DNA of 64,000 nucleotides, taken from positions 279,907,015 through 279,971,014 of the forward strand of contig OW240913.1 of the NCBI GenBank assembly GCA_933207985.1, written 5' to 3'. A model generated the notes under the pieces. The model was not told where the DNA came from. It searched no databases and saw nothing but the letters and a program-made list of their open reading frames with translations. The stretch comes from Pelobates cultripes (taxonomy: Eukaryota > Chordata > Amphibia > Anura > Pelobatidae). A program made the position numbers and the translations under genes. Of this stretch, positions 16,063-57,442 are shown in pieces (positions within the stretch are counted from its first letter, which is position 1; every line of letters begins with the position of its first letter).

Positions 16063-18434
16063 TGGGGCAAATGAAGGGAAATCAATTATTGGTTGGGATA
16101 TGTTATAATCCACCCAATGTAAATATTAATGAAGAAGAACAGCTGCTAAAGCAAATTGGGAAAGCTGCAAATCTGGGTAACATGTTAATTATTGGAGATT
16201 TTAATTACCCGGACAAAAATTAGGATAGAGGGACTAGTACTTCAGCAAAGGCAATCAGGTTTTTGAATGTGTTAAAATATACCTTCACTGGTACAAGCAC
16301 CAACTAGAAAGGATGCTTGTCTGGATCTCGTTATAACAAACAATGTTGATCTTTTGACCAACATTCAAGTAGGGAGCATTTGGGAAATAGTGATCACAAT
16401 AGGGTAATTTTTAAAATAAACTCAAAAAAGCAAAAGCACGTGAGACATACTAAAACGTGTAATTTTTAAAAAGTCAATTTCAATAAGATTAGGGCAGCTC
16501 TACAACATATCGACTGGCATAAACTCCTTAGTGAAAAAAAACCCACTGAGGATAAATGGAAACTCTTCAAATAAATATTAGAAAGGTACATTTCTCAGTA
16601 TGTATCATTGGGTAATAGACATAAAAGAAACAAATTTAAACCAATGTGACTTAGTAGAGAAGTAAAATAAGAGATTAAAAATAAGAAAAGGGCATTTAAA
16701 GCATTTAAAACAGACAAATCAGAGGCATCCTATATAAGATATAAAGAAGCCAATAATGCTTGCAAAAAGGCAATTAAAGTGGCTAAACTAGAAAATGAGA
16801 AATTTACAGCCAAAGAATGCAAAACCAACCCCAAACATTTTTTTCAAGTACATCAGAAATTTTAAATAACTATTTTTCTTCAGTAAATATTAATGAGGAT
16901 CCTATGGCAAGAGACATGCAAATGATTGCTGAAAAAAAACTTGCAGATAACTTGTGATTGTATGACTCGAGACAAGGTGCTTCAGTAGTTAAAGAAAATT
17001 AGTGTAAATAAAACTCCGGGGCCTGAACGTATTCACCCAGGAGTACTTATGGAGCTATGTAAGGAAATAAGTGAACCTCTGTATTTAATCTCTGTATTTC
17101 AAGATTAGTTTGTTTCAGGTATTGAACCGGAGGATTGGAGGAAGGCAGATGTCGTTCCTACATTTTAAAAGGGTTCAAAATCCTTGCCTGGAAATTATAG
17201 ACCTGTGAGCTTAACTTATGTGACTGGGAAAATATTGAAGGGCTATTAAAGGATAATATTCAGGAATTAATTGGGAAGAACTTTGTTATTAGCAATAATC
17301 AGCATGGTTTTATGAAACATAGGTCATGTCAAAGCAACCTAATTGCATTCTACGAAGAAGTAAGGAAAGGTATAGATCAGGCAGTTGCAGTGGATGTGAT
17401 CTACTTGGATTTTGCCAAGGCATTTGATACGGTTCCTCAGAATAGGTTAGTCTTCAAACCAAAAGAAATTGGTCTAGATTAATATTCTTGTTCTTGGATA
17501 GAACATTGGCTTAAGGTTAGACGAGTTGACATTAATGGTAAATTTTCAGGCTGGACAAAAGTGGTAAGTGGTGTCCCTCAGGGTTCTGTTTTGGGACCGC
17601 TTCTATATTACATATTTATAAATGATCTTGAAATAGGCATTAAAAGCCATGTTTTAGTGTTTGCAGAGGACACAAAACATTGTAAAGTAATAAAATGTGA
17701 GCAGGATATAACTTTGCTGCAGAGGGATTTAGATAATTTCGGGGACTGGGCAGATGAAATTTAATGTAGAGAAATGCAAGTTATGCACTTTGGGGTCAAG
17801 AATGCACAAGCAACTCACACTCTAAATGGTAGTGAATTAAGGATAACCACACACGAGAAGGATTTGGCAATTGTTATAGACAACAAATTAGGCAGCAATA
17901 TGCAATGTCAATCTGCAGTTGTTAAGGCCAGTAAGGTTTTGTCATGGATAAATAGGGGCATAAATTCTCGGATGAAAATATAATTTTGCCTCTTTATAAA
18001 TCGCTGGTAAGACCACACCTTGAATATGCTGTGCAATTTTGGGCACCTGTTCTAAAGAAGGATATTATGGCACTAGAAAAAGTGCAGAGACAAGGTACAA
18101 AATTGAAAAAAAGGAATGGAGCATTTTAGCTACGAGAAAGAATAAAAAAGAAAAATTTCTTTAGTTTGAAAAAACGGCACCTCAGAGGGTATATGATAAC
18201 ATTATAGAAATATATTCGGGTCCAGTACAAACCATTATCTGGAAATCTATTCATAGACAGGGCTATACATAGGACCTGAGGTCACACATTTAGGCTGGAA
18301 GAAAGGAGATTTAATCTAAGGCAAAGAAAATATTTTTTTTTACAGTAAGAGCTATAAGGATATGGAATTATCTTCCTGAAGAGCTAGTTTTATCACAGTC
18401 CATACAGATGTTTAAACAGCAATTGTATAGGCAG
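16063..18434 (+). pseudogene. CR1-clade LINE, copy B (old, both ends truncated)
   Basis: The same CR1 family as copies A and C but far more diverged. It covers endonuclease blocks (GWDML-like start, GDFNYPD), the RT region (APGP-like block near 17015, FAKAFDTVP near 17413, SGVPQGSVLGPLLY near 17567) and the C-terminal region, with many stops and indels. A short intact stretch runs 17561-17983. The copy stops about 270 bp before the expected 3' end, exactly where copy C begins. Confidence 0.85.
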
Positions 18435-20922
18435 CAACTTGTACAAGCACCAACTAGAATGGATGCTTGTCTGGACCTGGTTTTAACAAACAACGTTGAT
18501 CTTTTGACCAACATTCAAGTAGGTTAGCACTTGGGAAATAGTGATCACAATATAGTGTCCTTTGAAATAAACTCAAAAAAACAAAAGCACATGGGGAATA
18601 CTAAAACATATAATTTTAAAAAGGCCAATTTCAATAAGTTAAGGGAAGCTTTACAATATATTGACTGGCATAAACTCTTTAGTGAAAAGAACACTGAGGA
18701 TAAATGGATCATCTTCCAACAAATATTACAAAGGTACATTTCTCAGTATGTACCATTGGGAAATAAATATAAAAGAAACAAATTAAAACCAACATGGCTT
18801 AGTAGAGAAGTAAAACAAGAGATTACAACTAAGAGAAGGGCATTTAAAGCATTTAAATCGGACAAATCAGATGCATCTTATAAAAGATATAAGGATGCAA
18901 ATAATGCGTGCAAAAAGGCAATTAGACTTGCTAAACTTCAAAATGAAATAATGATAGCTGAAGAGAGCAAAACCAACCCCAAAGCATTTTTTAAGTACAT
19001 AAATTCTAAAAAACCCCAAAATGAAAGTGTAGGTACACTAAAAACTGAAACGGGGGTGTTAATTAATGAAGACCAGGAAAAGGCAGGAATTTTAAATAAC
19101 TTTTTCTCCTCCGTATATATTAAGGAAGAACCCATGGCAATAGATGTGCAAATGATTGCTACTAAAAACTTGCAGAATAATTGTAATTGGTTAACTCAAG
19201 ACAAGGTGCTGCAGCAACTAAAGAAAGTTAATATAAACAAAGCTCCAGGGCCTGACGGTATCCATCCACGTGTACTTAAGGAACTAAGTGCAGAAATAAG
19301 TGAACCTCTGTTTTTAATCTTTCAAGATTCTTTTCTTTCAGGAAGTGTTCCGGAGGATTGGAGGAAGGCAGATGTGGTTCCTATATTCAAAAAGGGTTCA
19401 AAATCCTTGCCTGGAAATTATAGACCTGTGAGCTTAACTTCTGTGGCTGGTAAAATATTTGAAAGTTTATTAAGGGATAATATTCAAGAATTCCTTGAGA
19501 AGAACATGGTTATCAGCAAAAATCAGCATGGTTTTATGAAGCACAGGTCATGTCAAACTAACTTGATTGCGTTCTACGAAGAAGTAAGTAGAAGTATAGA
19601 TCAGGGTGTTGCCGTGGATGTGATCTTTTTGGATTTTGCCAAGGCATTTGATACAGTTCCACACAATAGATTAGTGTTCAAACTCAAGGAAATCGGTCTA
19701 GATGAAAATGCTTGTTCTTGGGTAGAACATTGGCTTAAAAACAGAGTACAAAGAGTTGTCATTAATGGTAAATTTTCAAGCTGGACAGAGGTGGCAAGTG
19801 GTGTCCCTCAGGGGTCTGTTCTGGGACCCCTTCTATTTAACATGTTTATAAATGATCTTGAAGACCGCATTGAAAGTCATGTTTCAGTGTTTGCAGATGA
19901 CACAAAACTTTGTAAAACAATACAATGTGAGCAAGATATTACTTTGCTGCAGAGGGATTTAGATAGACTGGGAGACTGGGCACTCAAATGGCAGATGAAA
20001 TTTAATGTTGAAAAATGCAAAGTTATGCACTTCGGCGTAAAGAATACACAAGCAACGTATACCCTTAATGGAAGCGAATTAGGGATAACAACACATGAAA
20101 AGGACTTGGGAATTGTTATAGACAACAAACTATGCAACAATGTGCAATGTCAATCAGCAGTGGCCAAGGCCAGTAAGGTATTGTCATGCATGAAAAAGGG
20201 CATTCATTCTCGGGACAAGAATATAATTTTGCCTCTTTATAAATCACTGGTAAGACCCCATATTGAATATGCTGTGCAATTTTGGGCACCTGTTCTAAAG
20301 AAGGATATTATGGCACTAGAAAAAGTGCAGAGGCGGGCTACAAAATTAATAAAAGGAATGGAACATATCGGCTATGAAGAAAGGTTAACAAATTTAAACC
20401 TATTTAGTTTAGAAAAACGTCGCCTGAGAGGGGATATGATAACATTATACAAATATATTCGGGGCCAATACAAACCATTGTGTGGAAATCTATTCACAAA
20501 CCGGACTTTACATAGGACACGAGGCCATGCGTTTAGACTGGAAGAAAGAAGATTTCGCCTAAGGCAAAGGAAAGGTTTTTTTACTGTAAGAACAATCAGG
20601 ATGTGGAATTCTCTGCCTGAGGAAGTGGTTTTATCAGAGTCCATACAGATGTTCAAACGGCTACTAGATGCATACTTGCAAGAACAGAATATTCAAGGAT
20701 ATAATCTTTCAATGTAGGGTAATAACTGCTTGATCCAAGGATAAATCTGACTGCCATTCTGGGGTCAAGAAGGAATTTTTTTCCTAGCTTGTTGCAAAAT
20801 TGTGCTTCAAACTGGTTTTTTTTGCCTTCTTTTGGATCAACAGCAAAAAAACAAATGTGAGGAAGGCTGAACTTGATGGACGCAAGTCTCTTTTCAGCTA
20901 TGTAACTATGTAACTATGTAAC
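18435..20922 (+). mobile_element. CR1-clade LINE, copy C (young, 5'-truncated)
   Basis: It starts inside the endonuclease domain (coding LVQAPTRMDACLDLVL) and runs to a CTATGTAA tandem 3' end at about 20896-20922. The 3' UTR is about 200 bp. 5' truncation is the usual outcome of target-primed reverse transcription. It abuts copy B with no spacer and a shared CAACTTG at the joint. Confidence 0.92.
18526..20717 (+). CDS. CR1 ORF2 RT region, intact 728-codon frame (5' partial)
   Basis: The frame is open from just after a TAG near 18525 to the TAG ending at 20717. That TAG replaces a Glu codon present in copy A (VGEHLGNSDH reads VG-stop-HLGNSDH), so the endonuclease tail is cut from the RT. There is no ATG at the 5' end; the frame begins with TTG at 18531. 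RT blocks in order, counted from 18531: NKAPGPDGIHPRVLKE (about residue 236), FLDFAKAFDTVPHNRL (about 366), SGVPQGSVLGPLLF (about 422) and catalytic FADD (about 454), then the CR1 C-terminal region with [20 protein letters not shown] and RTIRMWNSLPEEVV. As a 5'-truncated copy it cannot encode a full protein, but the lack of breaks over 2.2 kb shows a recent insertion. Confidence 0.92.
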
Positions 20923-37629: not shown

Positions 37630-39249
37630 AACTGTTCTGTGTGGTACAGCTTGAAACATGTTCCTACACACAGTCCTGGTTTCGAAGGGCAATCAGGACA
37701 GTGAAAAGGGGTGTCTGTCCTTTTCCCATTTTAAAAACAGACCCGACAATGTTTCTGGGGGGTTTTTCTTCTAGCAGTTGGCGGTACTTGTCCATCTCCA
37801 TAAATTGTTAAAGAAATTATTTCCAACTGAAATTGGAGAAAGGTGGTTTTCCCCGGATAATTTTTTTTAAAAAGCATAAATGAGTTGTGGGTTGCTATTT
37901 GCATCAGATAGATAGCCACCTTTTTATACCATGCTTTTGTTTTTCGTAAAATAAGATATGGCTGCATCAGCTGATCAGCCAAATCAACACCCCCCATGTA
38001 CTTATTATATGCCCTGATGCAAACCGGTTTAGACTCTACTCTGCCCCGGACAGAGACGTCTGACATGCGTTCATCATGGATGGTGGTTAGCATGTTGACA
38101 TCCTTCCTGTCCCTAAATTTTAGTGCAAGCACTTCAGCTTTGCGAAGTGCTTTACATTCGCCTTTTTTTAATTTTGCCTCTATGAGAGATTGAGGAAAGT
38201 CTTTGGAATTTTTTCTGCAGTGCCGCAGGCCAGTGTCTGTAAACCATAAAGTGTTTTAAACAGACGGACATTACTATAAAAATTATCCACATAAAGGTGG
38301 TAACCTTTATTAAACAAGGGGTTTAGTAGGTCCCATGCAAGTTTCCCACTTGTCCCCAGGGAGTCAGGACAGCCAGGAGGGTCCAGTTGACCATCTTTTC
38401 CCTCATATACACAAAAGGCAAACGTGTATCCACTTTTGCTCTTGCACAGTTTTTACAGTTTTATGCCATACCTAGAGCGCTTTAAAGGGATGTATTGTCT
38501 GAACCCTAATCTCCCTTTGTATTTCATTAGCGATTCATCTATGGATACATTTTGTTGGGGGTATAAACATCCGAAAATTTGTCCTGAAAATGGTCTAGCA
38601 GTGGGCATATTTTATGAAGCTTATCGTATTGGGGGTGATCTCTAGGGTGAAAGAGGGTATTGTCACTGAAATGTAAAAATCTCAGCAGTAACTCGTATCT
38701 GGCTCTAGACATGGTTTGGGAGAATACTGGACTAGACATTATTGGGTTGGTGCTCCAGTATGAGTGAATCATTGGCTTCTTTATAATCCCCATGAGCATT
38801 GTAAGAGCCCAGAGTTTTTTAAGTTCTGGGACATCTGTGGGATGCCAGTCATGCTCCCTGACTGTATAGCTACCTGGATTATTATCAATAAATTGGGTAG
38901 CATTCAAGTTAGTCTGGGAAGCAATCTCCTCCCAGATGGTATCCCCTAAAAATAGTTCTACATACTGCATTGGGGAGAAGCCATCCACATTAACATTAAT
39001 GTCTGCGTTGGCACTAAAAGGGGGGACATTGGGCTCGGCTAACTGTGGCGGTACCCAGTCCTCCTCCACATTCGGCGTAGCAGAGGAAGCACAGCTTCTT
39101 TCTTCAGCCAGCTCACACACAGATGACATGTCGTCTTGACTAGACATGTCAGAAAACTGACCTGGGTCAAAATCTGACGCAGTGTCAGTGGCGTCAGAGT
39201 CTGACGCCAAGAAGGCATATGCCTCCTGCAAGTTATACATACGCTGCAT
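37630..39249 (-). pseudogene. piggyBac transposase, inactivated
   Basis: A DDE-type transposase that cuts and pastes at TTAA. The N-terminal part (39249-38539, 236 codons from MQRMYNLQEAYAF) has the acidic head and the FLGDTIWEEIASQTN and WALTMLMGIIKKP regions. The three expected catalytic aspartates are still readable: VSIDESLMKYKG (near 38530), HLYVDNFYSN (near 38290) and YMGGVDLADQ (near 37980). The C-terminal Cys-rich domain (HCRVCF, then HCPDCPSKPGLC in another frame, about 37750-37640) is present. Breaks: a frameshift near 38543, a TAA near 38454, a frameshift near 38225 and one near 37735. Length without breaks would be about 540 residues, normal for the family. It cannot make active protein as it stands. 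Confidence 0.93.
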
Positions 39250-39883
39250 GTTTTACCCACGACTAAAACAAATTACAAACACACAATTTTTTTTTTTTAT
39301 ACTTTTTTTTTTATTACTAAAACAGACTAAACTAACTCCTGTCACAAAAATCTAATGGATATTTGGGGGAAGGAAACTGACTGACTAAAACAGACCAAGA
39401 CAGACCACGACAGACCAAGACAGACCAAGACACCGATTTTCAAAACAAATTCAAATACAGACAGTACAACTGCACTGCTGTAACAGATCTGGCAGGGAAG
39501 GGGTTAAAAGGTGATTTTTTAAATAACATACTGATACTTTCTGATGGTCACTGAACACTGCTGCAACAAACTATCACGATCTCTCTCTCTCTCGCCTTAC
39601 AAAACGCTACAGAGGAGAGAGATCACTGTCAAAGTGAATGTTTGTAACACCAACTTTGACAGCAGCCAATTGTGAGCGATTGCGGATTGCTCACACGCCG
39701 CAATTGGCTGTTACTATCTGCCTGGGATGTCTGACAGATAGTTACAGTGTTATACCAGCAGGAGCAATCTTTGATCGCTTCCCGCAGCCCGTTTTTCGCT
39801 ATGACAGCTCAGGACCGTCAATGGTCCAAATGCACGTTTTACCGCTGACGGTCCTGAACCATCAGCGGTCCTGAAGGGGTTAA

Positions 39884-40564: not shown

Positions 40565-41480
40565 TTAAAGGGACAATATAGGCAGTGGCGGAACTACCGC
40601 GGTCGCAGGGGGCCCGGCCGCTCTACGGACCCCTGCGACCTGGAGCCCGCCGCCATGTGTTGCGGACCCGGCCAGTGTGGTAGAACCGCCGGAGCTGCAT
40701 GTCCAGGGGCCCATCGGGTGGTCCATGCTGTTAGGGCCACCCAATGGAAATTTATTTCCAGGGGGGCCCGGTCAGCGCTGCGGCGACTTAACAGGGCGAC
40801 CTGTGATGACATCAGACGCTGGTAGGAAGTGACAGCTCCGGTCACTTCCTCCCAGCAGTCAGAGAGAGCCATGCGGGAGGAACGAGAGGAGGGAGTCAGA
40901 GTGGGAACTCTGACTCCCATCAGGCTATACCACCACTGGACCCCAGAGAAAGTCACCCTCCTGCATCTAAAAAGTAGGAAACAGGAGGGTGACTTAAACA
41001 TTTTGTATATGTCTCTGTATGTATATGTATGTGTGTTTCTGTATGTATGTATCTACATGTCTGTATGTGTGTGTGTGTGTGTATGTATGGGACTGTGTGT
41101 GTGTATCTGTTTGTCCACATGTGTGGGGGGGATGGGGCCCAGGGCAATTTTCATACCGGGGCCATGTGGTTTCTAGTTATGCCTCTGAATACAGGCACCC
41201 AGACAACTTCATCATCTTATTGAAGTGGTCTAGGTGCTTTGTCCCTATGTCCTTAACCCTGCAATGTAAACATTGCAGTTTTAGACTGCCTCTAGTGGCT
41301 GTCTTCCAGACATTAATAAATTAATAAATTCCATTAATAAATTTCACCAAAAAGCATTGATTCAATGCTTTCCTATAGGGTAGGCCAAATGTAAGTGTGG
41401 CACATGCACATTAGGTTGTCCCATCGCTGAGATTTCACAGTTGGAGGAGCCTCATTGCTGGAATCAGAACTATCTATCAT
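40565..41480. mobile_element. T2-like MITE with nested hAT, right end lost
   Basis: TTAAAGGGACAATATAGG at 40565 is interrupted by a hAT element and resumes at 41188 with CAGGCACCCAGACAACTTCATCATC and the family blocks TTAACCCTGCAATGTAAAC and CTCTAGTGGCTGTCTTCC (each shown only in part). The right end is replaced by the 3' end of CR1 copy D at about 41486. Confidence 0.7.
40583..41187. mobile_element. hAT-type non-autonomous element, 605 bp
   Basis: It starts CAGTGGCGGAACTACCGCGG and ends CTAGTTATGCCTCTG. The 8-bp duplications AATATAGG (40575-40582) and AATACAGG (41188-41195) differ at one base. The middle is GC-rich, then GT-rich (41010-41130). No transposase is encoded. Confidence 0.8.
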
Positions 41481-41485
41481 ATATT

Positions 41486-42606
41486 GTTACATAGTTGAAA
41501 AGAAACATGCTTCCATCAAGTTCAGCCTTTCTCACATTTATTTTTGGGGTTGTGCCAGAATAAGACAAAAAAATCCAGTTTGAAGCGCCTCCATTTTTGT
41601 AGAAAACAAGGGAAAAAAATCCTACTTGACCCAAGAATGGCAGTTAGATATTTTCTTGAGTATATAAGCTATTACCTCACTGATTCAAAATAATATGCCT
41701 GAATATTATGTTTTTGCAAGTATTTATCCAATTGCTGTTTAAACATCTGTATAGACTCTGATAAAACCACCTTTTCAGGCAGAGAATTCCACATCCTTAT
41801 TGTTCTTACTGTAAAATACAATTTCATTTTCCTTAGACTAAATCTCCTTTCTTTCAGTCTAAATGGTGGACCTTGTCCTATTTATAGTCCTGTTCATGCA
41901 TACATTTCCAGACAATGGTTTTCATTGGTCCTGAATAAATTTGTATAATGCTATCATATCCCGAGGTGTGTTTTTTCCAAACTAAAGATATTTCAATTTG
42001 TTAACCTTTCTTTATAACTAAAATGCTCCATTCCTTTTATTAATTTTGTATCCCGCCTCTGTACTTTTTCTAGTGTTATGATATCCTTTTTTAGAACAGG
42101 TGCCCAAAATTGCACATTATATTCAAGGTGTGATCTTACCAGTGATTTATAAGAGGAAAAATGTATATTTTCATCCCAAGAATTAATGACCCTATTTATA
42201 CATGACAATAACTTGCTGGACTTAGCAACTGTCTAGAGACATATTGTTGCCTATTTTGTTGTCTATAACAATTCCCAAATCCTTCTCGTGCGTTGTTATC
42301 CCTAATTCACTACCATTTAGAGTGTAAGTTGATTGTGCATTCTTTACCTCGAAGTGCAAAAATGTGCATTTTAACATTAAATTTCATCTGCCATTTGAGT
42401 GCCCAGCCCCCCAATCTATCTAACTGCCTATGCTGCAAAGCAATATCCTGCATTGTATAACTTTATTTTTTGTATAATCTGCAAACACTAAAACATGGCT
42501 TTCAATGCCTATTTCAAGATTTATAAATATGTTAAAAATAAGTGGTTCCACAATAGTACCTTGAGGGACACCACTTTCCATTTTTGTCTAGCTTAAAAAT
42601 TGACCA
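41486..42606 (-). pseudogene. CR1-clade LINE, copy D, 3' part
   Basis: On the minus strand this is CR1 from the RT to the 3' end. Recognisable blocks are ESGVPQGT (near 42590), VFADYTK (near 42490, where the second catalytic Asp of FADD has become Tyr), [20 protein letters not shown] (near 42140) and the 3' end pairing with copies A and C (GCTGAACTTGATGGA, then AACTATGTAAC at 41486). Many stops and indels show age. It is cut at 42606 by a T2-like MITE and an older deletion. Confidence 0.85.
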
Positions 42607-43070
42607 TTAAAGGGACTTTCCATGCCAGTAAAACAAACCGTTTTCCTGGCACTGCAGGTCCCCTCTCACTCCAACCCCCCATCCCAGGTTGCTGAAGGGG
42701 TTAAAACCCCTTCAGTGACTTACCTGTATTCAGCGCCGATGTCCCTCGGCGCTGGGTCAGGCTCTGACTACGCTCCTCCCCATAGTAATAATGCTTTCAA
42801 TGCTTTCCTATGGGGATTTCGGCAATGCTGGAGGTCCTCACATAGCGTGAGGACATCCAGCATCGTTATAACACACTTTTCGTGTTCTATGAACACGCAA
42901 GTGTCCTCTAGTGGCTGTCTAGTAGACAGCCACTAGAGGAGGATTTAACCCTGCAAGGCAAATATTGCAGTTTATGAAAAGTGCAATAATTACACTTGCA
43001 GGGTTAAGGGTAGTGGGAGTTGGCACCCAGACCACTCCAATGGGCAGAAGTGGTCTTGGAGTATCCCTAA
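42607..43070. mobile_element. T2-like MITE inserted beside CR1 copy D
   Basis: TTAAAGGGACTTTCCATGCC on the left and GGAGTATCCCTAA on the right. The inside holds CAGCGCCGATGTCCCTCGGC, ACAGCCACTAGAGGAGG and the palindromic CACTTGCAGGGTTAAGG block of the group. Confidence 0.8.
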
Positions 43071-43074
43071 TGAC

Positions 43075-43910
43075 AATTAGCTTGTATACCAATCAAAGGT
43101 TGCCTCTTTTTACAGAGGAGTGTGTATAACAAAAGTGCTCAAAAGAGTCAAAAAGTGATTTACAGGCAGCTCAATACACTAGTGTGGAAATATCCTCTAT
43201 TCCACTGAATAAATTTAGTAGATATTGGTGCGGTGTAAGTGACAAGGACCTACACCTATAAGTGGAGCGCTCAAACACAGATAAATCTTACCAAAACGTA
43301 GTCTCATTCAATGGTAAAATATGGGGTACATGTCAAAATAAAATACAGAAAATACAATATAGTGTAGACGGTACTAAAAAATGGCTTCACAGTGATTATA
43401 ATAATATCGTGTTGAATATTACACTCACATTTCAAGGAGCCTGTATATAGAAAACACTGGCTCCGTATAAAGGCTTGTGTGCTGTTATGGTAGCACCACC
43501 CTCCTACTTCGGCTTGAAGAATTTCTCGGGAACACGAAAAAAAGAGAAGAAAGCAAACCAATGTATAGACTTATGGTGATAAATGACACAGATATGTGTT
43601 CAATAAATGGGGTGCTCACCTGGTCCTGAGCCTACGAATCCCGGCTCTAGGTATGTGGATTTTGTGCCAATTTGAATGGGGATGGCACTACCCCTGTGAG
43701 GATTCCTTGGAGGCTCCAAAAAGAACTTGGATGAGGTATTGAATGAAAATGGTGAATTTATTAGTTTAAAATAAACATAAACACAAAGATGATAAAAGTC
43801 CTCAAATAAAAGTCCTTTAAAAGTGGCCAATACGCGTTTCACTCTCAAATAGAGCTGACTGAAGAAGCTCTATTTGAGAGTGAAACGCGTATTGGCCATT
43901 TTAGTTGAAT
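43075..43910 (-). mobile_element. Penelope-like element terminal-repeat relic
   Basis: No RT or GIY-YIG coding remains. The assignment rests on a hammerhead-type core with GAAACGCGT at 43854-43896, as in the PLE at 50-53 kb, and on the layout: a sequence resembling the PLE terminal repeat, read on the minus strand, running into that hairpin. Confidence in the outer limits is low. Confidence 0.45.
43854..43896 (+). ncRNA. Hammerhead ribozyme motif in palindrome
   Basis: In order: stem I strand GCTGA, core CTGAAGA (fits CUGANGA), stem II GCTCT/AGAGT with a short loop, core GAAAC, a very short stem III GCG, cleavage-type triplet GTA, and stem I strand TTGGC (pairs with GCTGA using two G-U pairs). 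This is the type I, minimal-stem-III form reported for Penelope-like elements. The motif lies in a larger perfect palindrome, 43818-43902, whose arms include ACGCGTTTCACTCTCAAATA. That palindrome would compete with ribozyme folding. Confidence 0.65.
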
Positions 43911-44235
43911 ACCAGTACTTTTAGTTGAATACCATGAGATTTCAGAGCTTTTCCAATCACAATTTTTCTGCAAGTCTTTTTTTGCAGCAATCATATGCAT
44001 ATCTCTTGCCATATGATCCTCCTTAATAAATACTGAGGAAAAAGTAAAACATTTTGCCTTTTTAAAAATTTTTTTTTTATTTATGTACTTAAAACTGTAT
44101 TGATATTGGGTTTGCTCTTTTTGGCTATCCCTTTCTCATTTTCTAGTTCAGCCACTCTAATTGCCTTTCTGCATGCATTATTGGCTTCCTTATATCTAAT
44201 ACAGGATCTATTGATCCATCAATCCATCCATTGTG
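43911..44235 (-). pseudogene. CR1-clade LINE, copy D, linker part
   Basis: Minus-strand CR1 sequence between endonuclease and RT: coding traces match the NACKKAIRLAKLQNE and NNFFSSVYIKEEPMA regions of copies A and C. It shows that the MITE and PLE relic at 42607-43910 sit inside one CR1 copy, which has also lost about 0.6-0.8 kb of RT. Confidence 0.7.
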
Positions 44236-45884: not shown

Positions 45885-46936
45885 ACCGTTTTCCTGGCAC
45901 TATAGGCTCCTACAGTGCCCCCCCTCTTGTGCATCCCCCCCCCCACGCGGTGCTGAAGGGGTTAAAACCCCTTCAGTCACTTACCTGAATCCAGCGCGGA
46001 GGGTCAGGCTGTGCCCACTCTCCTCCCCCGCCGATGTCAGACGACAGGGGAGACCTAATACGCATTCAATGCTTTCCTATGGCGAAAAAAATCGTATGCT
46101 GGAGATCTTGCAGAGCATTAGGATGTCCAGTGTCAGATAACAGACCAAAGATCCGTTTCAATTCCAGAAGTCCCTCTAGTGGATGACTAGTAGACAGCCA
46201 CTAGAGAAGGAGTTAACACTCAGAGTGTCAGGGTTCTTACCTGAGATGGGAGTCTGTAGTGCAGATATGTTTGCTCACCCTTGCAGATAGACACAGTCCA
46301 AGGTGACCAGATAAGAAGCCACCCGGACTGTGAATCTGTGCACGGGGGTTGTGCAGTCTAGGTGATTCCAATGCAGTACTGACAAGGATACAAACAGCAG
46401 GTCAGGATTAACGAAGTGTAGCCAAAGTCAAGGAATGCCAGAGATCAGAATAAATAAAGACAGAAGCAAGGTTCGATATGGAGTTTAAGTTCCAGAGACA
46501 GGAACTGAACACACACACAACAGGATCAAAGACTTGATAAAGTTCCCTGGGTGAGGCTGTGTTTATATACCCTGCTGATGACTGATCCGAGTCAGGTGAA
46601 GCACTTGCAATGACCACAGACGAAGTCCAGCCCACAGTGCTGCAGACATAGCCAGGAATAATAGGGCTAGAACAGCTTTAAATAAACAGAACTGCTGTGG
46701 CTCAAAGGCAGATAGCAGACCCAGAACAGCAAAGTAACCATGTTTAAATCCCCTGTCGGGTACCCATGGGGCGGCCAAGCTTGGCCGTCTGTATGGTATG
46801 GTGAGAACCCTGACACAGTGGTAATTATTGCAGTTTTTCAGAAACTGCAATAATTACCACTGTAGAGTTAAGGGACAAGGGACATGGGATATTGCAATGA
46901 GCTGAAGTGGTCTGGGTTCCTACAGTTTCCTTTTAA
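45885..46936. mobile_element. T2-like MITE interrupted by another element
   Basis: The left part has CCGTTTTCCTGGCACTATAGG and TTCAGTCACTTACCTGAATCC blocks shared with the MITE at 42607. The right part, from 46814, resumes GTGGTAATTATTGCAGTTTT and ends CAGTTTCCTTTTAA at 46936. The leftmost terminus is missing. Confidence 0.7.
46228..46813. mobile_element. Non-autonomous DNA transposon, 586 bp
   Basis: Ends TCAGGGTTCTTACC and GGTGAGAACCCTGA are inverted (one mismatch). The flanks CAGAGTG and CACAGTG form an imperfect 7-bp duplication. The superfamily is not certain; hAT is possible. Confidence 0.65.
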
Positions 46937-49439: not shown

Positions 49440-49869
49440 CTAGGATTTTGGGGGGTATAATAAAGTGAGCCAAGGTTTCCACATTTGTTTCGTTCTTCTT
49501 GCTTTCTGATGGGAATCTGAAGAAAGAATCTTGTATTTATAATATTGGTATAATTTGTCTAGTAGTTCCTTACGTGAGGGACAGTATGTGCTTTTCCAAT
49601 GTTGGGCTAAAAGGTTCCTAGCTGCTAGTATGACAAGGGAGGTTAATTTCTTAGCCTCTTTCTTCCACGTGTTTGGTAAGAGTAACATGAGTGCCACTAA
49701 TGGTGTGAGAGGTGCCGAGTAGCATATTGTTTTTTTGTTTAGTATTTGTTGGACCTGTGACCAAAGGGGTCTAATCGCGTCACACTCCCACCAAATATGG
49801 GTCATAGTACCACTTTCTGAGCCACATCTCCAACACTTGGGGTCTACTGCTGGATATATTTGATGGAGC
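49440..49869 (-). pseudogene. L1/Tx1 ORF2 C-terminus beyond the PLE
   Basis: It resumes exactly after the PLE duplication with YPAVDPKCWRCGSESG and THIWWECD, the Cys/His motif C-x2-C-x7-H-x4-C of L1-type ORF2, and stops at 49440. Before the PLE the protein reads WYLTPQRLHQI, so the PLE split the C-terminal domain just upstream of the motif. This part shows no internal stop. Confidence 0.88.
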
Positions 49870-50681
49870 AGAAAAAGTGTGCAGCGCATGAACCAAACCC
49901 ACAAATCTTATAGGAGTATAAACACAATCAGTGCATAAAAATACAAAGAGAGATAAATACCCCAGTATTTTAAGATCTTTAAGGGTCATAAGTTTTTGTC
50001 AGATCCCATATAGAAACTGGTTCAAGTAGTATCACTTTAAGATGTCTCAGATCAAATCTTGAAGTTACTCTCAGGGGTGTAGCTTGATCCTCAGAATATG
50101 TAAATTGTAGAACAAGCAAACATCAAATTAAAAGAGTATAAAAAACAAATTTATTATAAGTAAATAAAAACCTTACATTGAGGTCTTATAAAATCAGCAA
50201 AAGATGACAGCATAAATAGCAGCACAACGCGTTTCAACGATCAATCTCGTCTTCCTCAGGTGCAGTTCACATTGTTACATAAAATTCATACATTTAAAAG
50301 CCTTTTGGCGCGGAAAATCGGGTACTTAGGACCCGCCCCCTTTGCCATCGGACCAATCAGCAGAGACTAGATGACTTCCTCTTCACAGTCTGTGATTTCC
50401 GGATTCATGCGTTCCATTCCTTTTACTTCCGGTATCGCATGCGTTCCAATATGCGTCTCACAGGGGGCACTTCCGGTTTCACTTGCGGTCCGGTTTACCC
50501 AGCGAAAGAGTTCCTTACCAAGTTCATATGGCTGCTAAACCTCAAGTCCACATAAACATAATGGAATAATATACATGTGCACATAGGTGCTCATGTATAT
50601 GTGTACAAAACATGTACATGGGGAACAGGGAAATAAATAGAAAAGGCAAAAGTTAATAATAGCCACAAATAACAAATTATC

Positions 50682-50712
<31 letters not shown>

Positions 50713-51076
50713 ATCTAGATATATATAGAATAAATATATAAATATATAAAATATATAATAAAAGAGTAAGGTGGAACCAATAAAAGTGTATTCACCAGGT
50801 GTGCAGAAAATTAGATATAATTGTACATTTAAAAATCAATGTTTAAAACACATGGAGAGAGGGTTTCCAGCTCAAAGATCCATTTCATTTCTGTTTTGTT
50901 CAGGATCTTGAGATGGTCCCCCCCTCTCCATGGTTTTTGAACCTTTTGGATTCCCAGGAAATGTAAGCATTTAGTGTCCCCATTATGTTTTTGATAGACA
51001 TGTGCTGATACTGAATGATTAAGAACTCCCTTTTGTACATTCCTAAAATGTTCACAGATCCTGACTTTTAGGGGTT
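49870..51076 (-). repeat. Left inverted arm of the PLE
   Basis: Reverse complement of 51938-53176: it contains, inverted, the end of the GIY-YIG frame, the 3' UTR and the hammerhead motif. It has a TCTCTA-type microsatellite at about 50680-50725 where the right arm has a longer CTATAT-type one. Confidence 0.9.
50222..50263 (-). ncRNA. Hammerhead ribozyme motif in PLE left arm
   Basis: The inverse copy of the motif at 52780-52821, with the same core and stems, on the minus strand. The two motifs therefore point away from each other. Confidence 0.75.
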
Positions 51077-51120
51077 TTTAATATGGAAGGGAAGTAAGAC
51101 ATCACTGGATAACTTTTTAA

Positions 51121-52182
51121 TTAATTTTTTTAAATTCTAATTCTTGGGGTATTAAGCTTACCTCGGAAATAAGTAATCAAGAAGTACACTTCTTAGATTT
51201 AAAGATCTTTATTGATAATGGAGTTGTTAAGACTAGTATTACTTTTTTTAAAACTGTTGATGTCAATAGTTACATCAACAGTGAGAGTTGCCATTTTAAA
51301 TCTTGGCTTTCAAACATCCCTAAAAGCCAATTCATGAGAATAAAAAGGAACTGTACGGAAGAAAAAACATTTTTAGAACAAACTGATATGTTAAAAGAAC
51401 AATTTTGTCAGAAAGGATACAAAAAAGTTGATGTAGAGGCACAATTGGAGGAAGTTTTAACTAAGCCCAGAAAAGACTTACTAATGTATAAAAAGAGAAA
51501 AGAATGCACACAAACAAAACAAGTGTCTTTTATATGTGACTATAACTCACAGAGTCATATTTTTCACAAAGTTTTAAAAAAACATTGGTATATTCTTAAG
51601 CAAAATGAAGATCTTTGCGAATATATAGGAGAAAAGCCGAAAATAATTTATAGAGGCGCCAATAATTTTAAAGATATATTGACCACTAGTTATATCCCTA
51701 AAAGACCCCTTAGAGATAATGATCTACAAGGAAAAAAATTACAAGGGTTTTTTAACTGTGGGAACTGTAGGGCGTGTAGTATGAGTAAAATCATAAATAA
51801 AAAAACTGAGAAATTTATTTCAAATAAAACACAAAAAGAATATACAGTTAAAGACTTTATAACATGTAACTCAAACAATGTTATTTATTTATTAACGTGT
51901 ATCTGTGGACTGCAGTACATAGGGCGTACCACTAGACCCCTAAAAGTCAGGATCTGTGAACATTTTAGGAATGTACAAAAGGGAGTTCTTAATCATTCAG
52001 TATCAGCACATGTCTATCAAAAACATAATGGGGACACTAAATGCTTACATTTCCTGGGAATCCAAAAGGTTCAAAAACCATGGAGAGGGGGGGACCATCT
52101 CAAGATCCTGAACAAAACAGAAATGAAATGGATCTTTGAGCTGGAAACCCTCTCTCCATGTGTTTTAAACATTGATTTTTAA
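51121..52182 (+). CDS. PLE protein: RT C-terminal part and GIY-YIG endonuclease (5'-truncated)
   Basis: PLEs encode a telomerase-related RT fused to a GIY-YIG nuclease that nicks the target. The frame is open from 51121 to the TAA at 52182 (about 353 codons); the first Met is at 51334. EVHFLDLKIFIDNG (about residues 22-35) is the last RT block. A Cys motif CGNCRACS lies near residues 214-221. The GIY-YIG domain follows from about residue 252: NVIYLLTC, LQYIGRT with its conserved Arg in TRPLKVRICEH, and a Glu-containing NKTEMKWIFELETL near the end. The catalytic RT part (YxDD) is missing because of the 5' truncation, so this copy cannot retrotranspose by itself. The open frame fits a young insertion. 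Confidence 0.92.
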   Translation, partial: LIFLNSNSWGIKLTSEISNQEVHFLDLKIFIDNGVVKTSITFFKTVDVNSYINSESCHFKSWLSNIPKSQFMRIKRNCTEEKTFLEQTDMLKEQFCQKGYKKVDVEAQLEEVLTKPRKDLLMYKKRKECTQTKQVSFICDYNSQSHIFHKVLKKHWYILKQNEDLCEYIGEKPKIIYRGANNFKDILTTSYIPKRPLRDNDLQGKKLQGFFNCGNCRACSMSKIINKKTEKFISNKTQKEYTVKDFITCNSNNVIYLLTCICGLQYIGRTTRPLKVRICEHFRNVQKGVLNHSVSAHVYQKHNGDTKCLHFLGIQKVQKPWRGGDHLKILNKTEMKWIFELETLSPCVLNIDF

Positions 52183-53176
52183 ATGTACAATTATATCTAA
52201 TTTTCTGCACACCTGGTGAATACACTTTTATTGGTTCCACCTTACTCTTTTATTATATATTTTATATATTTATATATTTATTCTATATATATCTATATCT
52301 ATATCTATATCTATATCTATATCTATATCTATATCTATATCTATATCTAGATAGAGATAGAGATAATTTGTTATTTGTGGCTATTATTAACTTTTGCCTT
52401 TTCTATTTATTTCCCTGTTCCCCATGTACATGTTTTGTACACATATACATGAGCACCTATGTGCACATGTATATTATTCCATTATGTTTATGTGGACTTG
52501 AGGTTTAGCAGCCATATGAACTTGGTAAGGAACTCTTTCGCTGGGTAAACCGGACCGCAAGTGGAACCGGAAGTGCCCCCTGTGAGACGCATATTGGAAC
52601 GCATGCGATACCGGAAGTAAAAGGAATGGAACGCATGAATCCGGAAATCACAGACTGTGAAGAGGAAATCATCTAGTCTCTGCTGATTGGTCCGATGGCA
52701 AAGGGGGCGGGTCCTAAGTACCTGATTTTCCGCGCCAAAAGGCTTTTAAATGTATGAATTTTATGTAACAATGTGAACTGCACCTGAGGAAGACGAGATT
52801 GATCGTTGAAACGCGTTGTGCTGCTATTTATGCTGTCATCTTTTGCTGATTTTATAAGACCTCAATGTAAGGTTTTTATTTACTTATAATAAATTTGTTT
52901 TTTATACTCTTTTAATTTGATGTTTGCTTGTTCTACAATTTACATATTCTGAGGATCAAGCTACATCCCTGAGAGTAACTTCAAGATTTGATCTGAGACA
53001 TCTTAAAGTGATACTACTTGAACCAGTTTCTATATGGGATCTGACAAAAACTTATGACCCTTAAAGATCTTAAAATACTGGGGTATTTATCTCTCTTTGT
53101 ATTTTTATGCACTGATTGTGTTTATACTCCTATAAGATTTGTGGGTTTGGTTCATGCGCTGCACACTTTTTCTGTT
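51938..53176 (+). repeat. Right inverted arm of the PLE
   Basis: Sense arm with the GIY-YIG C-terminus, 3' UTR, a (TCTATA)n tract at about 52280-52350 and the hammerhead motif at 52780-52821. Confidence 0.9.
52780..52821 (+). ncRNA. Hammerhead ribozyme motif in PLE right arm
   Basis: In order: stem I strand GCAC, core CTGAGGA (fits CUGANGA), stem II GACGA/TCGTT around a GATTGA loop, core GAAAC, minimal stem III GCG, cleavage-type triplet GTT, and stem I strand GTGC, which pairs fully with GCAC. Type I order with a nearly absent stem III and a palindromic ACGCGT is the form reported for animal PLE ribozymes, which may act as dimers. Activity cannot be judged from sequence. Confidence 0.78.
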
Positions 53177-53287
53177 TTGTACACTATTTTTGTGGGATTA
53201 TTGTGATTGTACCCACTAGTGTGTTCTAGCTGCTATTTATTTTAGCGCCGCAAATTGTATTTTTTCTGTTTTAATATTTGATGGAGC

Positions 53288-55800
53288 CTCTGTGGTGTCA
53301 GGTACCACCTGTAAATTACTTTTTTGTGAGCTTCTATATGTGAGAAGCAAGATGTGAGACCTTTAAGAGCGTTCAATGATTGGAGCCATTGGTCGTCTGT
53401 AAGTTTGAGTATACCTTCTTTTTCCCATTAAGTTACATATTTGAAGGAATGCGGTGGTGTGTGGCCTAAGAGGATCTTGTAGCACAAGGATAAGACCTTG
53501 GGTTTAGTCGGTGAAGATAGACACCTGGTGACAATAGCTAGTGTGTGGTTCGCTCGTGGTAATGTTAATTGAGGCTGTATTGTTACCTTATTTTGCACCA
53601 TACCTTTTAATTGTAAGTATCGGAATATAAAAAAAGGCAGGTTATATTTTGTCTGCAGTTCGGGGAAGGTCAATACATTCGCATGGGAGCAAAAATCTTT
53701 GATGTGGGTGATACCATAAGTGTACCAAGGTTTCAACGTCTGCCACGTTGACACCCCTTCCAGTGCCCCCAACGGGGTATATATACAAAATTACCCTTTT
53801 TCAGACATGGCGGCTAAAACTTTATGCCAGATTTTCATGGTCAGCTTGGTGGGGGGGTATAGCTGAAGTTTCAGCAATCTATATATTTTTGGGGAGCACA
53901 AAGCATGTAACAGCTGGTGTGGGAGTGTTTTGTCGTGTTCCATGTCGACCCATTGCAATGTGTGTCTGGGAGCATGGATGCATATAACGGATTCAAGGAT
54001 GGCGGCCTCATAGTAGGTAGCTATTTTTAGGAAGCCCAAACCTCCCGACAACATTCAAAATATATACAGAATCTTGGGCAGTAGTACCATCTCGATAGAG
54101 TTGAGTTTACCCAGCTACGATAGTTGGACGTGCCTCCATGTCTGAAAATATGATGTGCATATGTGGTGTAGCGGTCCATAGTTGAGGGACACCATTTTTG
54201 GGGCATGTAGGGCTAGCTTCACTCCTAAATATGCAATGTATTTTTGTCTCCAATAAAATTTGAAGCCTTGACGTAGTTGGTTTACTTGTGCTGTTGGTAT
54301 GTGTAGTGGTAGAGCTTGTGTTTTAGTGCTATTAAGTTTATAATATGATATACGTCCGTAGTCTTGTAATATATCCATGAGTTGAGGCAGAGATACCTCT
54401 GGTTTGCTAAGAGAAAGTAAAATATCATCAGCAAACATGGATAATGTGTAGTTAGTGGCTTTTATGTGTATTCCAGTAATAAGTGGATATTGTCAAAGTT
54501 TGTGGGCTAGGGGCTCTAATGCCTGTCTGGTACCATTGGTGAGGCCAAATGGCGATGACAGGAATCCCGATTGGTATCTATAGAGTGTCATGATCCCTTG
54601 TATGAGTTTTTGTGGGAAGCCATATTTAATCAGTACTGATGTCATGTATGCCCAGTTGAGCCTATCAAAGGCTTTTTTGGCATCTAGAGCTAAAAGGAGG
54701 CTTTCAGTCCTTTCCGCTGTGACGTGGGATAGTATATTAAGATTCTTCATAGCATTATCGGAAACCTTGCCTCCCTTTTATGAAGCCTGATTGAACGTTA
54801 TGTAGAATGTGTGGTAAAATGGGGGCTATTCTGTTGGCTAATAGTTTGGCATATATTTTAGTGATGCAGTTTAGGAGGGAAATGGGTTTAACGTTTGAGC
54901 ATTGAGTCGGGTGTTTTCCTGGTTTTGGAAGTGTTGTTATGTGGGCTTGGAGCATATCTGTGGGCATGACACCTGTTTGGAAACAGCAATTAAATAATAA
55001 AGTCATGTGAGGTGCCAGGATATCTTTGAATGTGCGATTTCTATTAGTGGGGTATTGTGTGGTTATGGAAATTGTTATTGGTGCGTGTTCAGACCAGGAG
55101 ATATTGCCTATATCGGTTTTGGATATTTGTAGTGTTGGAACTAAAAAACGGTCTATCCGTGAGTATGTGTCATGTACCAAGGAGTGGTGTGTGTGTGTGT
55201 GTGTGTGTGTGTGTAGTCCTTTTCAAGAGGGTGTAGATTTCTCCAGATATTGGAATATCCATGGGAGAACAGTACATTCTCTATGAGGGAGGTAGATAGT
55301 GTGCTTCGTTGTGTCATTGTATGTGAGATCTTGGAAGTTGAGGTGGTGTCCATGGATGGGTCTACTATAAAGTTAGTATCTCCTCCTATGATGACCTCAC
55401 CAAGCTTATGCACTTTCGTTAGAGTAAGGACATGGTCTAAAAAAACGTGTTGATCATTGTGTGGGCTGTAGATGTTGACTAGTGTGTATTGGGTATTATT
55501 AATATTACATTGTAGGAGAAGATATCGTCCCTTTTTGTTTCTTAGTTTTTTTATAAATTGGAATGACACGTAGTTGCTAATTAAAATTGAGACTTCTCTT
55601 TTCTTTTTTTTTGTATGTGCTATGGTAACCTATCGGATATTGTCTGGAGGAAAGTTTGGGATGTCGTGCAGTTTGGAAATGTTTCTTGGAAGAATGCTAT
55701 GTGTGCTCTGTGTTTTTTTTTGCTTCTACCAGGGCCATGCGTCTTTTATGGGGTGAGTTGAGTCCCTTAGTGTTCAATGAAAATACATTAAGTGACATAG
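53288..55800 (-). pseudogene. L1/Tx1 ORF2, endonuclease and RT part, with deletions
   Basis: Endonuclease: SLNTKGLNSPHKRRMALVEA (near 55770), an FFQET-type block (near 55690), NIYSPHNDQ, GGDTNF (near 55390) and SRIDRFLV ... SEHAPI (near 55150-55080). An expanded (GT)n at 55188-55216 lies in the coding region and shifts the frame. After TNRNR the frame passes directly to TFKDILAPHMTLLFN, skipping roughly 200 residues including the NKCPGPDG block. RT: TLPKPGKHPTQCSNVKPISL, LDAKKAFDRLNW (near 54680) and FADDILL (near 54430). Motif B reads GTRQ directly followed by ALEPLAHK, so GCPLSP is gone. More frameshifts occur before 53288, where the PLE begins. Confidence 0.88.
55188..55216. repeat. (GT)n microsatellite inside L1 endonuclease
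   Basis: About 14 GT units. On the coding (minus) strand it gives a run of Thr-His between KDYT and the PWYMTHTHG sequence. Confidence 0.9.
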
Positions 55801-56490
55801 GAGGGTATCTCTGGTGTATATGTATATTGATGATCTTCTTGGAGGATTGCTATGTGTCTCAAGGTGCTGATATATGGTTCACAATTGTGGGTCTGTAGCT
55901 GTGGCTGTGGCTGGGTGTTCGTGTTGTTGATTCATAGACTTGTGGTATTGGTATATTCATATTGCGGTAGCAATGGGTCATTTTGGTATGGGGGGGGGGG
56001 GACCAGGTTGAGAAGAATAACAGAATAAGGGCTTTTAGTATTTGCTTTTGCTTGTTTACCTATAGCGTGTGTGTCCCCTGCAGCATCATACATTGTTTGC
56101 AGTATGTGTGATGTCTATCAGAACCTATTAGCGGTTTATAATAGGTATGTTGCTAGATTGGTCATTTGCGTTGCCGGTCTTGTGGTATTTATCGGCATGA
56201 TAGGGGGGTTAGGTATGTATGTCTTTCTGGAGGAGCATATAACGATTATGTACTGGTCTCATAGTACATTAGTGTCCTCGCTATATTGCGATATAACTAT
56301 CCTAGATATTTTAAATTAACCCAGTGCTAGTACATATGACCATCAGTGTAACCAAATGAAAATTATAAACTTCAGAACTAACATGTAAATCATAAATAAT
56401 GTATACGGTGCATATAAGTTTGTGCAACTCTTTTTACACCACATTCGTGTAAGCGTGATTATATTAAGCCTGCGGTGCTTGCATATAGAG

Positions 56491-57442
56491 TCACTTATCT
56501 GCAGTCGTGGTATTCCAATCTGGGGTAAGTTTCATCGATGACTTTGCAGCTTCTTGTCCGGTGGAGGGTTCTTGCGCATTTGAGTCTATTGGTATATTCC
56601 AGTCTGCCAGGGCCTTTCTTCCGTCCTCTGGGGTAAGGAGATGTCTCTCGGCGCCATTACGTTTAATGATAAGACGTGCCGGGAATCCCCATTTGTAAGG
56701 TACGTCCGCTGTGAGCAGGGCCTTGGTAATCGGCATAAAGGTCTTCCTCGCTGCCAGCATGGACGCCTAGAGGTCCGTGAAGAGTTGGAGCTTGCCATAG
56801 GCCTCAGGTAGGGTAGGCTGTTTTCTTGATGCCTGCATTATGGCCTCTTTGGTGGTATAGTAGTGGACTCTTGTAATAGTGTCCCGCGGGGTAGTTGCCG
56901 GGACATTTTTAGGCTTTGGCAATCTGTGTGTCTTATCGAGGAGCAAGGCTTCTTCTTTGAGGTCTGGTACCAATAGATGGAATAGCGCCTTGATGTGAGT
57001 TCCCAGGTTTTTAGAATTAACCTCTTCGGGGATGCCGCGTATGCGAATATTATTTCGCCTATCTCTATCTTCATGGTCGGCAAGTTTTGTGAGGATGGAT
57101 TGGATTTTTACCTCCATGTTCTCGTAGGCCATAGCCACATTGTTGTGCGCAGAGATAATTTCCTCTGTTTTGTTTTCATCTGCTCTTATTTCTTTTGCCA
57201 ATTTAGCGAAATAAGCTTGTAGGGATGTTTGTAATCCATTTAGCATTTATTTTTTGAATGGAGGATTCCGTGGCTGGGAGGTCGTTAGTGGAGATGGAGG
57301 TAATGTCGTTCCTGTCTGAGCTCGAAGCCGGTGATAGTGGTTCACCGGTGCCATCTGGGGCGCGGCGTTGCGGCGAGGACATTGCAGTAATCTGCAGGGA
57401 AGGCGTCTTCAGTTTAGCCTTTTTTGTGGAACCTTGTGCCAT
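56491..57442 (-). pseudogene. L1/Tx1 ORF1 protein, broken
   Basis: ORF1 binds element RNA. The start Met at 57442 (MAQGSTKKAKLKTPS) opens a 79-codon head. A frameshift near 57220 moves to the frame with the coiled-coil-like stretch (AKEIRADENKTEEI) and the RRM-type core RDRRNNIRIRGIPE (near 57060). An in-frame TAG at 56767-56769 follows LQLFTDL; the C-terminal domain continues in the same frame as ASMLAARKTFMPITKAL to 56491. Order and motifs match L1 ORF1. Confidence 0.85.

What the first reader, a model, noticed from the sequence alone, without database searches (positions are those of the whole stretch)
49856..53287. Young Penelope-like element with long inverted arms, outward-facing hammerheads and a perfect 14-bp TSD
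Seen: perfect flanking ATATTTGATGGAGC, two ~1.2-kb arms that are near-perfect inverses, an open RT-tail/GIY-YIG frame, and hammerhead cores in both arms (52780-52821 plus, 50222-50263 minus). Known: PLEs carry minimal hammerheads in their flanking repeats, usually discussed as direct repeats. Inference: here the terminal repeat copy is inverted, so a transcript across the locus could form a 1.2-kb duplex that masks both ribozymes or feeds small-RNA production.
Basis: partly seen in the sequence, partly recalled or inferred. Interest (0 to 1): 0.85.

Follow-up and report, generated by a model that had tools for sequence, protein, structure and literature searches.

The report
Frog-type Penelope retroelement with inverted arms
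This is a fairly young, broken copy of a Penelope-type jumping gene that landed in an older jumping gene; its mirror-image layout is a form already known for this class, and the best reading is that both cut ends of the target DNA were used to copy its RNA.

Summary
A perfect 14-bp target-site duplication (TSD) flanks a 3,404-bp insert: a truncated Penelope-like element (PLE, 51076-53273) preceded by an inverted second copy of its last ~1.2 kb (49870-51075). The arms differ by 4 substitutions in 1,185 aligned bases plus a microsatellite. Joining the flanks gives a 189-codon stop-free frame of an L1-like LINE, so this looks like one real insertion. The 353-codon frame is a PLE RT-tail/GIY-YIG end; the seven database relatives with a named organism, of twelve, are frogs.

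The inverted layout is not new: PMC3846280 describes an inverted pLTR, a TSD and a one-sided "tail" as the typical Penelope insert. The right copy has such a tail (~100 bp). The best mechanism is reverse transcription from both target-strand ends at two internal RNA sites, then joining of truncated cDNAs; it fits in-vitro data (PMC11167929) but is inferred.

The hammerhead-like motifs are real patterns, but no Rfam model matches, the core has an extra A, and cleavage is untested. Only one is sense in any transcript. The duplex/small-RNA idea has no evidence here. A second hammerhead-like palindrome lies ~6 kb away. Other genomic copies could not be searched.

The parts
49856..49869 (+). left copy of the 14-bp target-site duplication
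   Evidence: exact direct repeat; no other match with 0-1 mismatch in the window
49870..51075 (-). inverted arm: second PLE copy, 5'-truncated at the equivalent of 51936 (in the GIY-YIG region), starting at the equivalent of 53173, without tail
50222..50263 (-). hammerhead-like motif in the left arm
   Evidence: identical to 52780-52821
50695..50715 (-). GA/GATA-rich microsatellite of the left arm, differing from the right arm
51075..51076 (.). junction of the two copies, about 1 nt of possible microhomology (T); right copy resumes just after the YIDD box
   Evidence: reading of sequence
51076..53273 (+). direct PLE copy, 5'-truncated; RT catalytic part missing
51121..52182 (+). open frame, 353 codons: RT tail, Cys-rich linker, GIY-YIG endonuclease
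   Evidence: relative P0006 matches PF01541; the window protein itself has no meaningful Pfam match
51936..53173 (+). part of the direct copy that is duplicated as the inverted arm
52780..52821 (+). hammerhead-like motif: stem I GCAC/GTGC, CTGAGGA plus extra A, stem II GACGA/TCGTT, GAA, ACGCGT, T, predicted cut before GTGC
   Evidence: stem II pair probability 0.80-0.99 but stem I only ~0.018 in a 401-nt context
53174..53273 (+). one-sided 3' extension ('tail') present only on the right copy
   Evidence: compared with PMC3846280 and PMC11167929
53274..53287 (+). right copy of the 14-bp target-site duplication

Best explanation
This is a single insertion of a GIY-YIG Penelope-like element, of a kind found in frogs, into an older L1-like LINE on the minus strand. 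Shown: two copies of the element's 3' end lie 3'-outward (head to head), one 14-bp TSD flanks the pair, their inner ends are truncated at different points (51936 and 51076), and their outer ends lie ~100 nt apart on the element. Inferred: the PLE protein cut both target strands 14 nt apart, and each 3' end primed reverse transcription of element RNA. The right (bottom-strand) end started at 53273 and ran to 51076. The left (top-strand) end started at 53173 and ran to the equivalent of 51936. The two unfinished antisense cDNAs were then joined with almost no homology, and second strands were filled in. The result is a dead copy with no 5' half. It has no demonstrated function.
For: One shared TSD outside both copies and no copy of it at the inner junction. 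Joining the flanks gives a 189-codon stop-free frame across the site, 46 codons on one side and 143 on the other, reading like L1 ORF2 by eye. Head-to-head arrangement with unequal inner truncations and a junction of about 1 nt microhomology (reading of sequence). The outer ends differ by ~100 nt, matching the published one-sided 'tail' in kind. In vitro, a Poseidon PLE protein from Anolis cleaves and extends both target strands and starts reverse transcription internally at two adjacent RNA sites, which explain the tail (PMC11167929, parts 1-2 of 4 read; whole text searched by term). Seven of 12 protein relatives carry an organism name and all seven are frogs.
Against: No other copy of this family could be examined, so it is not known whether 53173 and 53273 are recurrent start sites (genome search did not complete). 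The ~100-nt tail is longer than the 30-40 bp reported. Folding around the two presumed start sites is not better than shuffles (z -0.53 and -1.04). Both-strand priming was shown in vitro for another PLE (Anolis Poseidon), not this family. The Anolis paper found no difference in start site between top and bottom strands, so it does not predict that the two ends should differ. The LINE call rests on reading: Pfam has no match for the frame at the site.
Confidence: 0.65

Rival explanations
1. Self-priming (snap-back): the first cDNA folded back and copied itself, making the inverted arm, as proposed for rotifer Penelope elements.
For: Proposed in PMC3846280 for inverted junctions with palindromes (Discussion read; there on an antisense template). 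Near-identity of the arms fits. The second locus at 43820-43902 has a near-palindromic centre.
Against: No palindrome at this junction: 860 bases lie between the arms, and the cDNA end has about 1 nt of homology to the place where copying would resume (reading). A snap-back copy should run to the template's end and into flank; this arm stops ~100 nt short, exactly at the TSD.
Confidence: 0.2
2. Two separate PLE insertions in opposite orientation, or a later inversion or recombination between tandem copies.
For: PLEs often lie as tandem or partial-tandem copies.
Against: Only one TSD, at the outermost ends; none at the inner junction. The flanks rejoin to an open frame.
Confidence: 0.06
3. Assembly palindrome: one arm is a mis-joined copy of the other.
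For: Long near-identical inverted arms are a typical misassembly; no reads were available.
Against: The arms differ at 4 sites and in the microsatellite, end differently, and sit inside a perfect TSD whose flanks rejoin to an open frame.
Confidence: 0.04
4. The inverted arms are functional: transcripts form a duplex that hides the ribozyme or feeds small RNAs.
For: Sequence would allow a ~1.2-kb duplex. Rotifer Penelope copies give small RNAs, mostly antisense, with polarity switching in permuted inverted Pen3 copies (PMC3846280).
Against: No transcription or small-RNA data here; the layout is explained by the insertion process alone.
Confidence: 0.05

Closest known systems
Penelope Pen2a_Av and relatives of Adineta vaga, with inverted pLTR, TSD and tail (PMC3846280)
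   Same: 3'-outward inverted repeat closing the insert, TSD, tail on one side only, shortened inverted copy, insertion into another retroelement
   Different: pLTRs quoted there are 181-218 bp and TSDs 8-10 bp; here the arms are ~1.2 kb, reach into the endonuclease frame, there is no direct 5' pLTR, the tail is ~100 bp rather than 31 bp and the TSD 14 bp. Long inverted structures as such are not unique: the paper also reports them for Pen3 and Pen4
Poseidon of Anolis carolinensis (PAc; PMC11167929)
   Same: GIY-YIG PLE with hammerhead motif; internal start of reverse transcription at two sites; both target strands cleaved and extended in vitro
   Different: start sites lie 111-118 bases into the ORF and close together (tail 30-40 bp); the paper does not discuss inverted genomic copies (term 'inverted' occurs once, for inverted dT)
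L1 twin priming (recalled, not looked up)
   Same: a second primer on the other target strand gives a 5' inversion within one TSD
   Different: in twin priming the inverted part is the neighbouring upstream stretch; here it is a second copy of the 3' end itself

Membership tests
Penelope-like elements with GIY-YIG endonuclease | RT of PLE type joined to a GIY-YIG endonuclease in one frame | tested here: inconclusive
   Only the RT tail and endonuclease part are present. They align to frog ORFs; P0011 matches RVT_1 above its cut-off, P0009 slightly and P0001 well below. The RT catalytic part is missing here and the window protein has no meaningful Pfam match.
Penelope-like elements with GIY-YIG endonuclease | GIY-YIG motif | tested here: met
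   VIYLLTC...QYIGRT...R..EH aligned with relatives; P0006 matches PF01541 above its cut-off over that region. By alignment, not by a direct Pfam match.
Penelope-like elements with GIY-YIG endonuclease | pseudo-LTR type repeats, direct or inverted, with TSD | tested here: met
   Inverted copy and 14-bp TSD; compared with PMC3846280.
Penelope-like elements with GIY-YIG endonuclease | subgroup (Neptune, Poseidon or Penelope) | not tested
   No tree was built; Neptune would be a guess from memory for amphibians.
Type I minimal hammerhead ribozyme | core CUGANGA / GAA with stems I and II and cleavable H17 | tested here: inconclusive
   Pattern found at 52780 (+), its mirror 50222-50263 (-) and 43854 (+), each with an extra A after CUGANGA; no Rfam hammerhead up to E=10 in 49800-53400; stem I weak in context; fold z-scores -1.11, -0.08 and 0.18.
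Type I minimal hammerhead ribozyme | self-cleavage | not testable with these tools
   needs an assay; PAc's motif needed its protein to cleave in vitro, and its loss did not affect insertion there.
Target-primed insertion from both strands | two 3'-outward copies inside one TSD with separate outer start sites | tested here: met
   single locus only, and the layout is consistent with the process rather than proof of it.

The most novel reading that the evidence does not exclude
Head-to-head PLE inserts such as this one are the genomic footprint of routine two-ended target-primed reverse transcription: each target strand primes its own element RNA at one of two internal start sites, so the one-sided tail and the inverted arm come from the same reaction, and self-priming on an antisense template is not needed.
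Probability: 0.45. Interest if true: 0.55.

Novelty: new member of a known kind. Interest (0 to 1): 0.33.

Why it matters
How PLEs insert is still unsettled, and their inverted copies have been explained by self-priming. This copy is clean enough (one TSD, an open target frame, long arms, unequal outer and inner ends) to serve as a worked example separating self-priming from priming on both target strands, a question other copies in amphibian genomes could answer by counting end positions. The locus itself is a dead, ordinary-kind insertion.

Tried and rejected
Other genomic copies: the genome search 'own' was asked eight times in the same form and never answered. The viral-contig scan with the ORF matched 3 stretches, none a relative.

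Rfam: no hammerhead; the 13 weak hits (E 0.023-7.5, far below gathering) were taken as chance. One viral contigs match to a hammerhead-like DNA pattern (L001) shows no stem II by eye in the 100 bases printed and was taken as chance.

Start-site structure: stretches 53120-53259 and 53130-53262 fold no better than shuffles (55 and 28 of 200 shuffles as good); of 95 windows of 134 nt scanned, the ten most stable all start at 52400-52530. The shared TTTTTCTGTTTT at 53167 and 53261, near both outer ends, occurs 3 times in the window and is kept only as a lead.

Microsatellite difference as proof of two template RNAs: rejected, since such arrays change fast enough after insertion (inference).

PDB sequence search and Pfam of the window ORF: nothing of use (0 hits; one sub-cut-off FlgO hit, E 0.22). 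Pfam of the LINE pieces: no match for 49440-49907, 55153-55629 and 56767-57246; RVT_1 below its cut-off for 54755-55222. So 'L1-like' is by eye.

Second locus 43820-43902: no shared flanking word longer than 8 bp between 42900-43750 and 43885-43990 and no PLE protein there, so it is only a probable PLE remnant.

Papers seen but not used: PMC12910113 (passages), nothing on the layout in those passages.

Full report
What is there. The window holds a 3,404-bp insert (49870-53273) between two exact copies of a 14-bp word. The left part (49870-51075) is the reverse complement of 51936-53173. Outside a microsatellite, which I left out of the count, 4 of 1,185 aligned bases differ, all transitions, with no indels. 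The microsatellite is a TATATC array on the right and a GA/GATA array on the left. The right copy runs on for ~100 bp (53174-53273) beyond the point where the left arm stops.

It is one insertion. With the two flanks joined, a minus-strand frame reads stop-free for 189 codons across the site, 46 on one side and 143 on the other. By eye it is the end of an L1-type ORF2; Pfam has no match for this frame and only a sub-cut-off RVT_1 match (E 3.5e-5) for a minus-strand piece at 54755-55222. So the 14-bp word is very probably a true target-site duplication. Apart from its two copies no place in the window matches it with fewer than 2 mismatches, which speaks against two nested insertions. The four substitutions, the different arrays and the different outer ends speak against an assembly palindrome, though no reads were available.

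The protein. The 353-codon frame 51121-52182 has 12 database relatives at E<=0.001. I aligned 11 of them: 35-50% identity; the twelfth, P0012, is 27%. Seven carry an organism name, all frogs: Xenopus laevis, Pelobates cultripes, Leptobrachium leishanense. The frame ends in a GIY-YIG domain by alignment; a relative (P0006) matches PF01541, but the window protein itself has no PDB match and no meaningful Pfam match. In relatives (for example RYIDDIFLIWKG in P0009) the RT active-site box spans the point where this copy begins with FLIWKG, so the copy starts just after that box. That first stretch (51075-51119 by tblastn with P0008, E 0.006) reads in a different frame from the rest. It cannot encode a working RT.

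The hammerhead-like motif. A pattern scan (core CUGANGA, optional extra base, stem II of at least 3 bp, GAA, short A...T stem III, stem I of at least 4 bp) hit three places in the window: the two arms, which are identical there, and 43854-43896; 60 first-order Markov copies, both strands, gave none. I wrote the pattern after seeing the motif. All hits use the extra A, so there are two independent sequences. Between them, 4 of 5 stem II pairs differ on both sides and stay paired (read), which favours a real structure, though the pattern demanded at least 3 paired. Against: no Rfam hammerhead match; stem I forms with probability ~0.018 in a 401-nt context; folded alone, z is -1.11 (44 nt), -0.08 (61 nt) and 0.18 (left arm, 62 nt). 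An extra nucleotide at this place is known from a viroid hammerhead (recalled). Animal PLE hammerheads are described as minimal and atypical (PMC7229834, 12 of 19 passages shown). The Anolis motif cleaved only with its protein, mutating it did not affect insertion, and no RNA-seq reads were found that began or ended at its cut site. The two motifs of this locus point outward, so any transcript carries one sense and one antisense copy; they cannot both be ribozymes in one RNA or release a unit between them.

How it probably arose. In the layout, each target-strand 3' end is followed by an antisense copy of the element's 3' region: the top strand by the left arm, the bottom strand by the right copy. 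That is what one expects if both strand ends primed reverse transcription. In vitro, the Anolis Poseidon protein cleaves and extends both target strands and starts inside the RNA at two adjacent sites; the stretch between them is the genomic tail (PMC11167929, parts 1-2 of 4 read, whole text searched by term). That paper saw no difference in start site between the strands, so the use of two different sites here is not predicted by it, only allowed. Here the right copy would start at 53273 and the left at 53173. The inner junction (51075/51076) shares about 1 nt, as in end joining of two unfinished cDNAs. The self-priming model of PMC3846280 (Discussion read) rests on palindromes at the junction, and none is present here. 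The two-ended mechanism is inferred from one locus.

Known or new. The inverted layout is known: an inverted pLTR with TSD and a one-sided 31-bp tail is called typical in PMC3846280, and inverted pLTRs are mentioned in PMC8969392 (passages). The rotifer paper also reports long tandem/inverted structures in Pen3 and Pen4, and that Pen1 mostly has direct pLTRs only. What differs here from the Pen2-type inserts is size: arms of ~1.2 kb reaching into the endonuclease frame, a ~100-bp tail and a 14-bp TSD. I did not find a paper that explains inverted PLE copies by priming from both target strands, in searches (listings, and the papers named above) of an open-licence library that lacks most subscription journals.

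Recurrence. Whole-genome copies could not be searched: eight identical requests did not complete. Inside the window, 43820-43902 shows a second head-to-head pair around a hammerhead-like motif (37-nt arms, 97% complementary, 9-nt centre), of different sequence. No PLE protein was found there, nor a shared flanking word longer than 8 bp, so it is only suggestive. Its near-palindromic centre would fit self-priming better than the main locus does.

Verdict. It is a clean new example of a known kind.

Noticed in passing
window 43820-43902: A second hammerhead-like motif (43854-43896, +) mirrored on the minus strand, a 37-nt palindrome with 9-nt centre; probable inverted PLE remnant of another family, boundaries unclear.
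   Followed up: partly
window 10244-12718 and 18435-20916: Two LINE copies 97.5% identical over ~2.49 kb, with further 81-85% copies at 16063-18429 and 80-82% at 41480-42610 (minus); a 729-codon open frame at 18528-20717 matches RVT_1 (E 1.3e-37).
   Followed up: partly
window 49440-57246: The PLE sits in what reads by eye as a minus-strand L1-type LINE whose pieces continue to about 57.2 kb (ORF1-like frame at 56767-57246); Pfam supports only a weak RVT_1 match at 54755-55222.
   Followed up: partly
window 37731-39252: Two minus-strand frames match DDE_Tnp_1_7 (E 1e-18 and 1.4e-29), a transposase in pieces; piggyBac-type by recall.
   Followed up: partly
window 53167 and 53261: TTTTTCTGTTTT occurs at both presumed reverse-transcription start regions; only one further copy (37017) in the window.
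   Followed up: partly
window 42637-42957 and 45885-46220: Two copies of a short repeat with internal palindromes (such as CTGAAGGGGTTAAAACCCCTTCAG), probably a miniature transposon.
   Followed up: no
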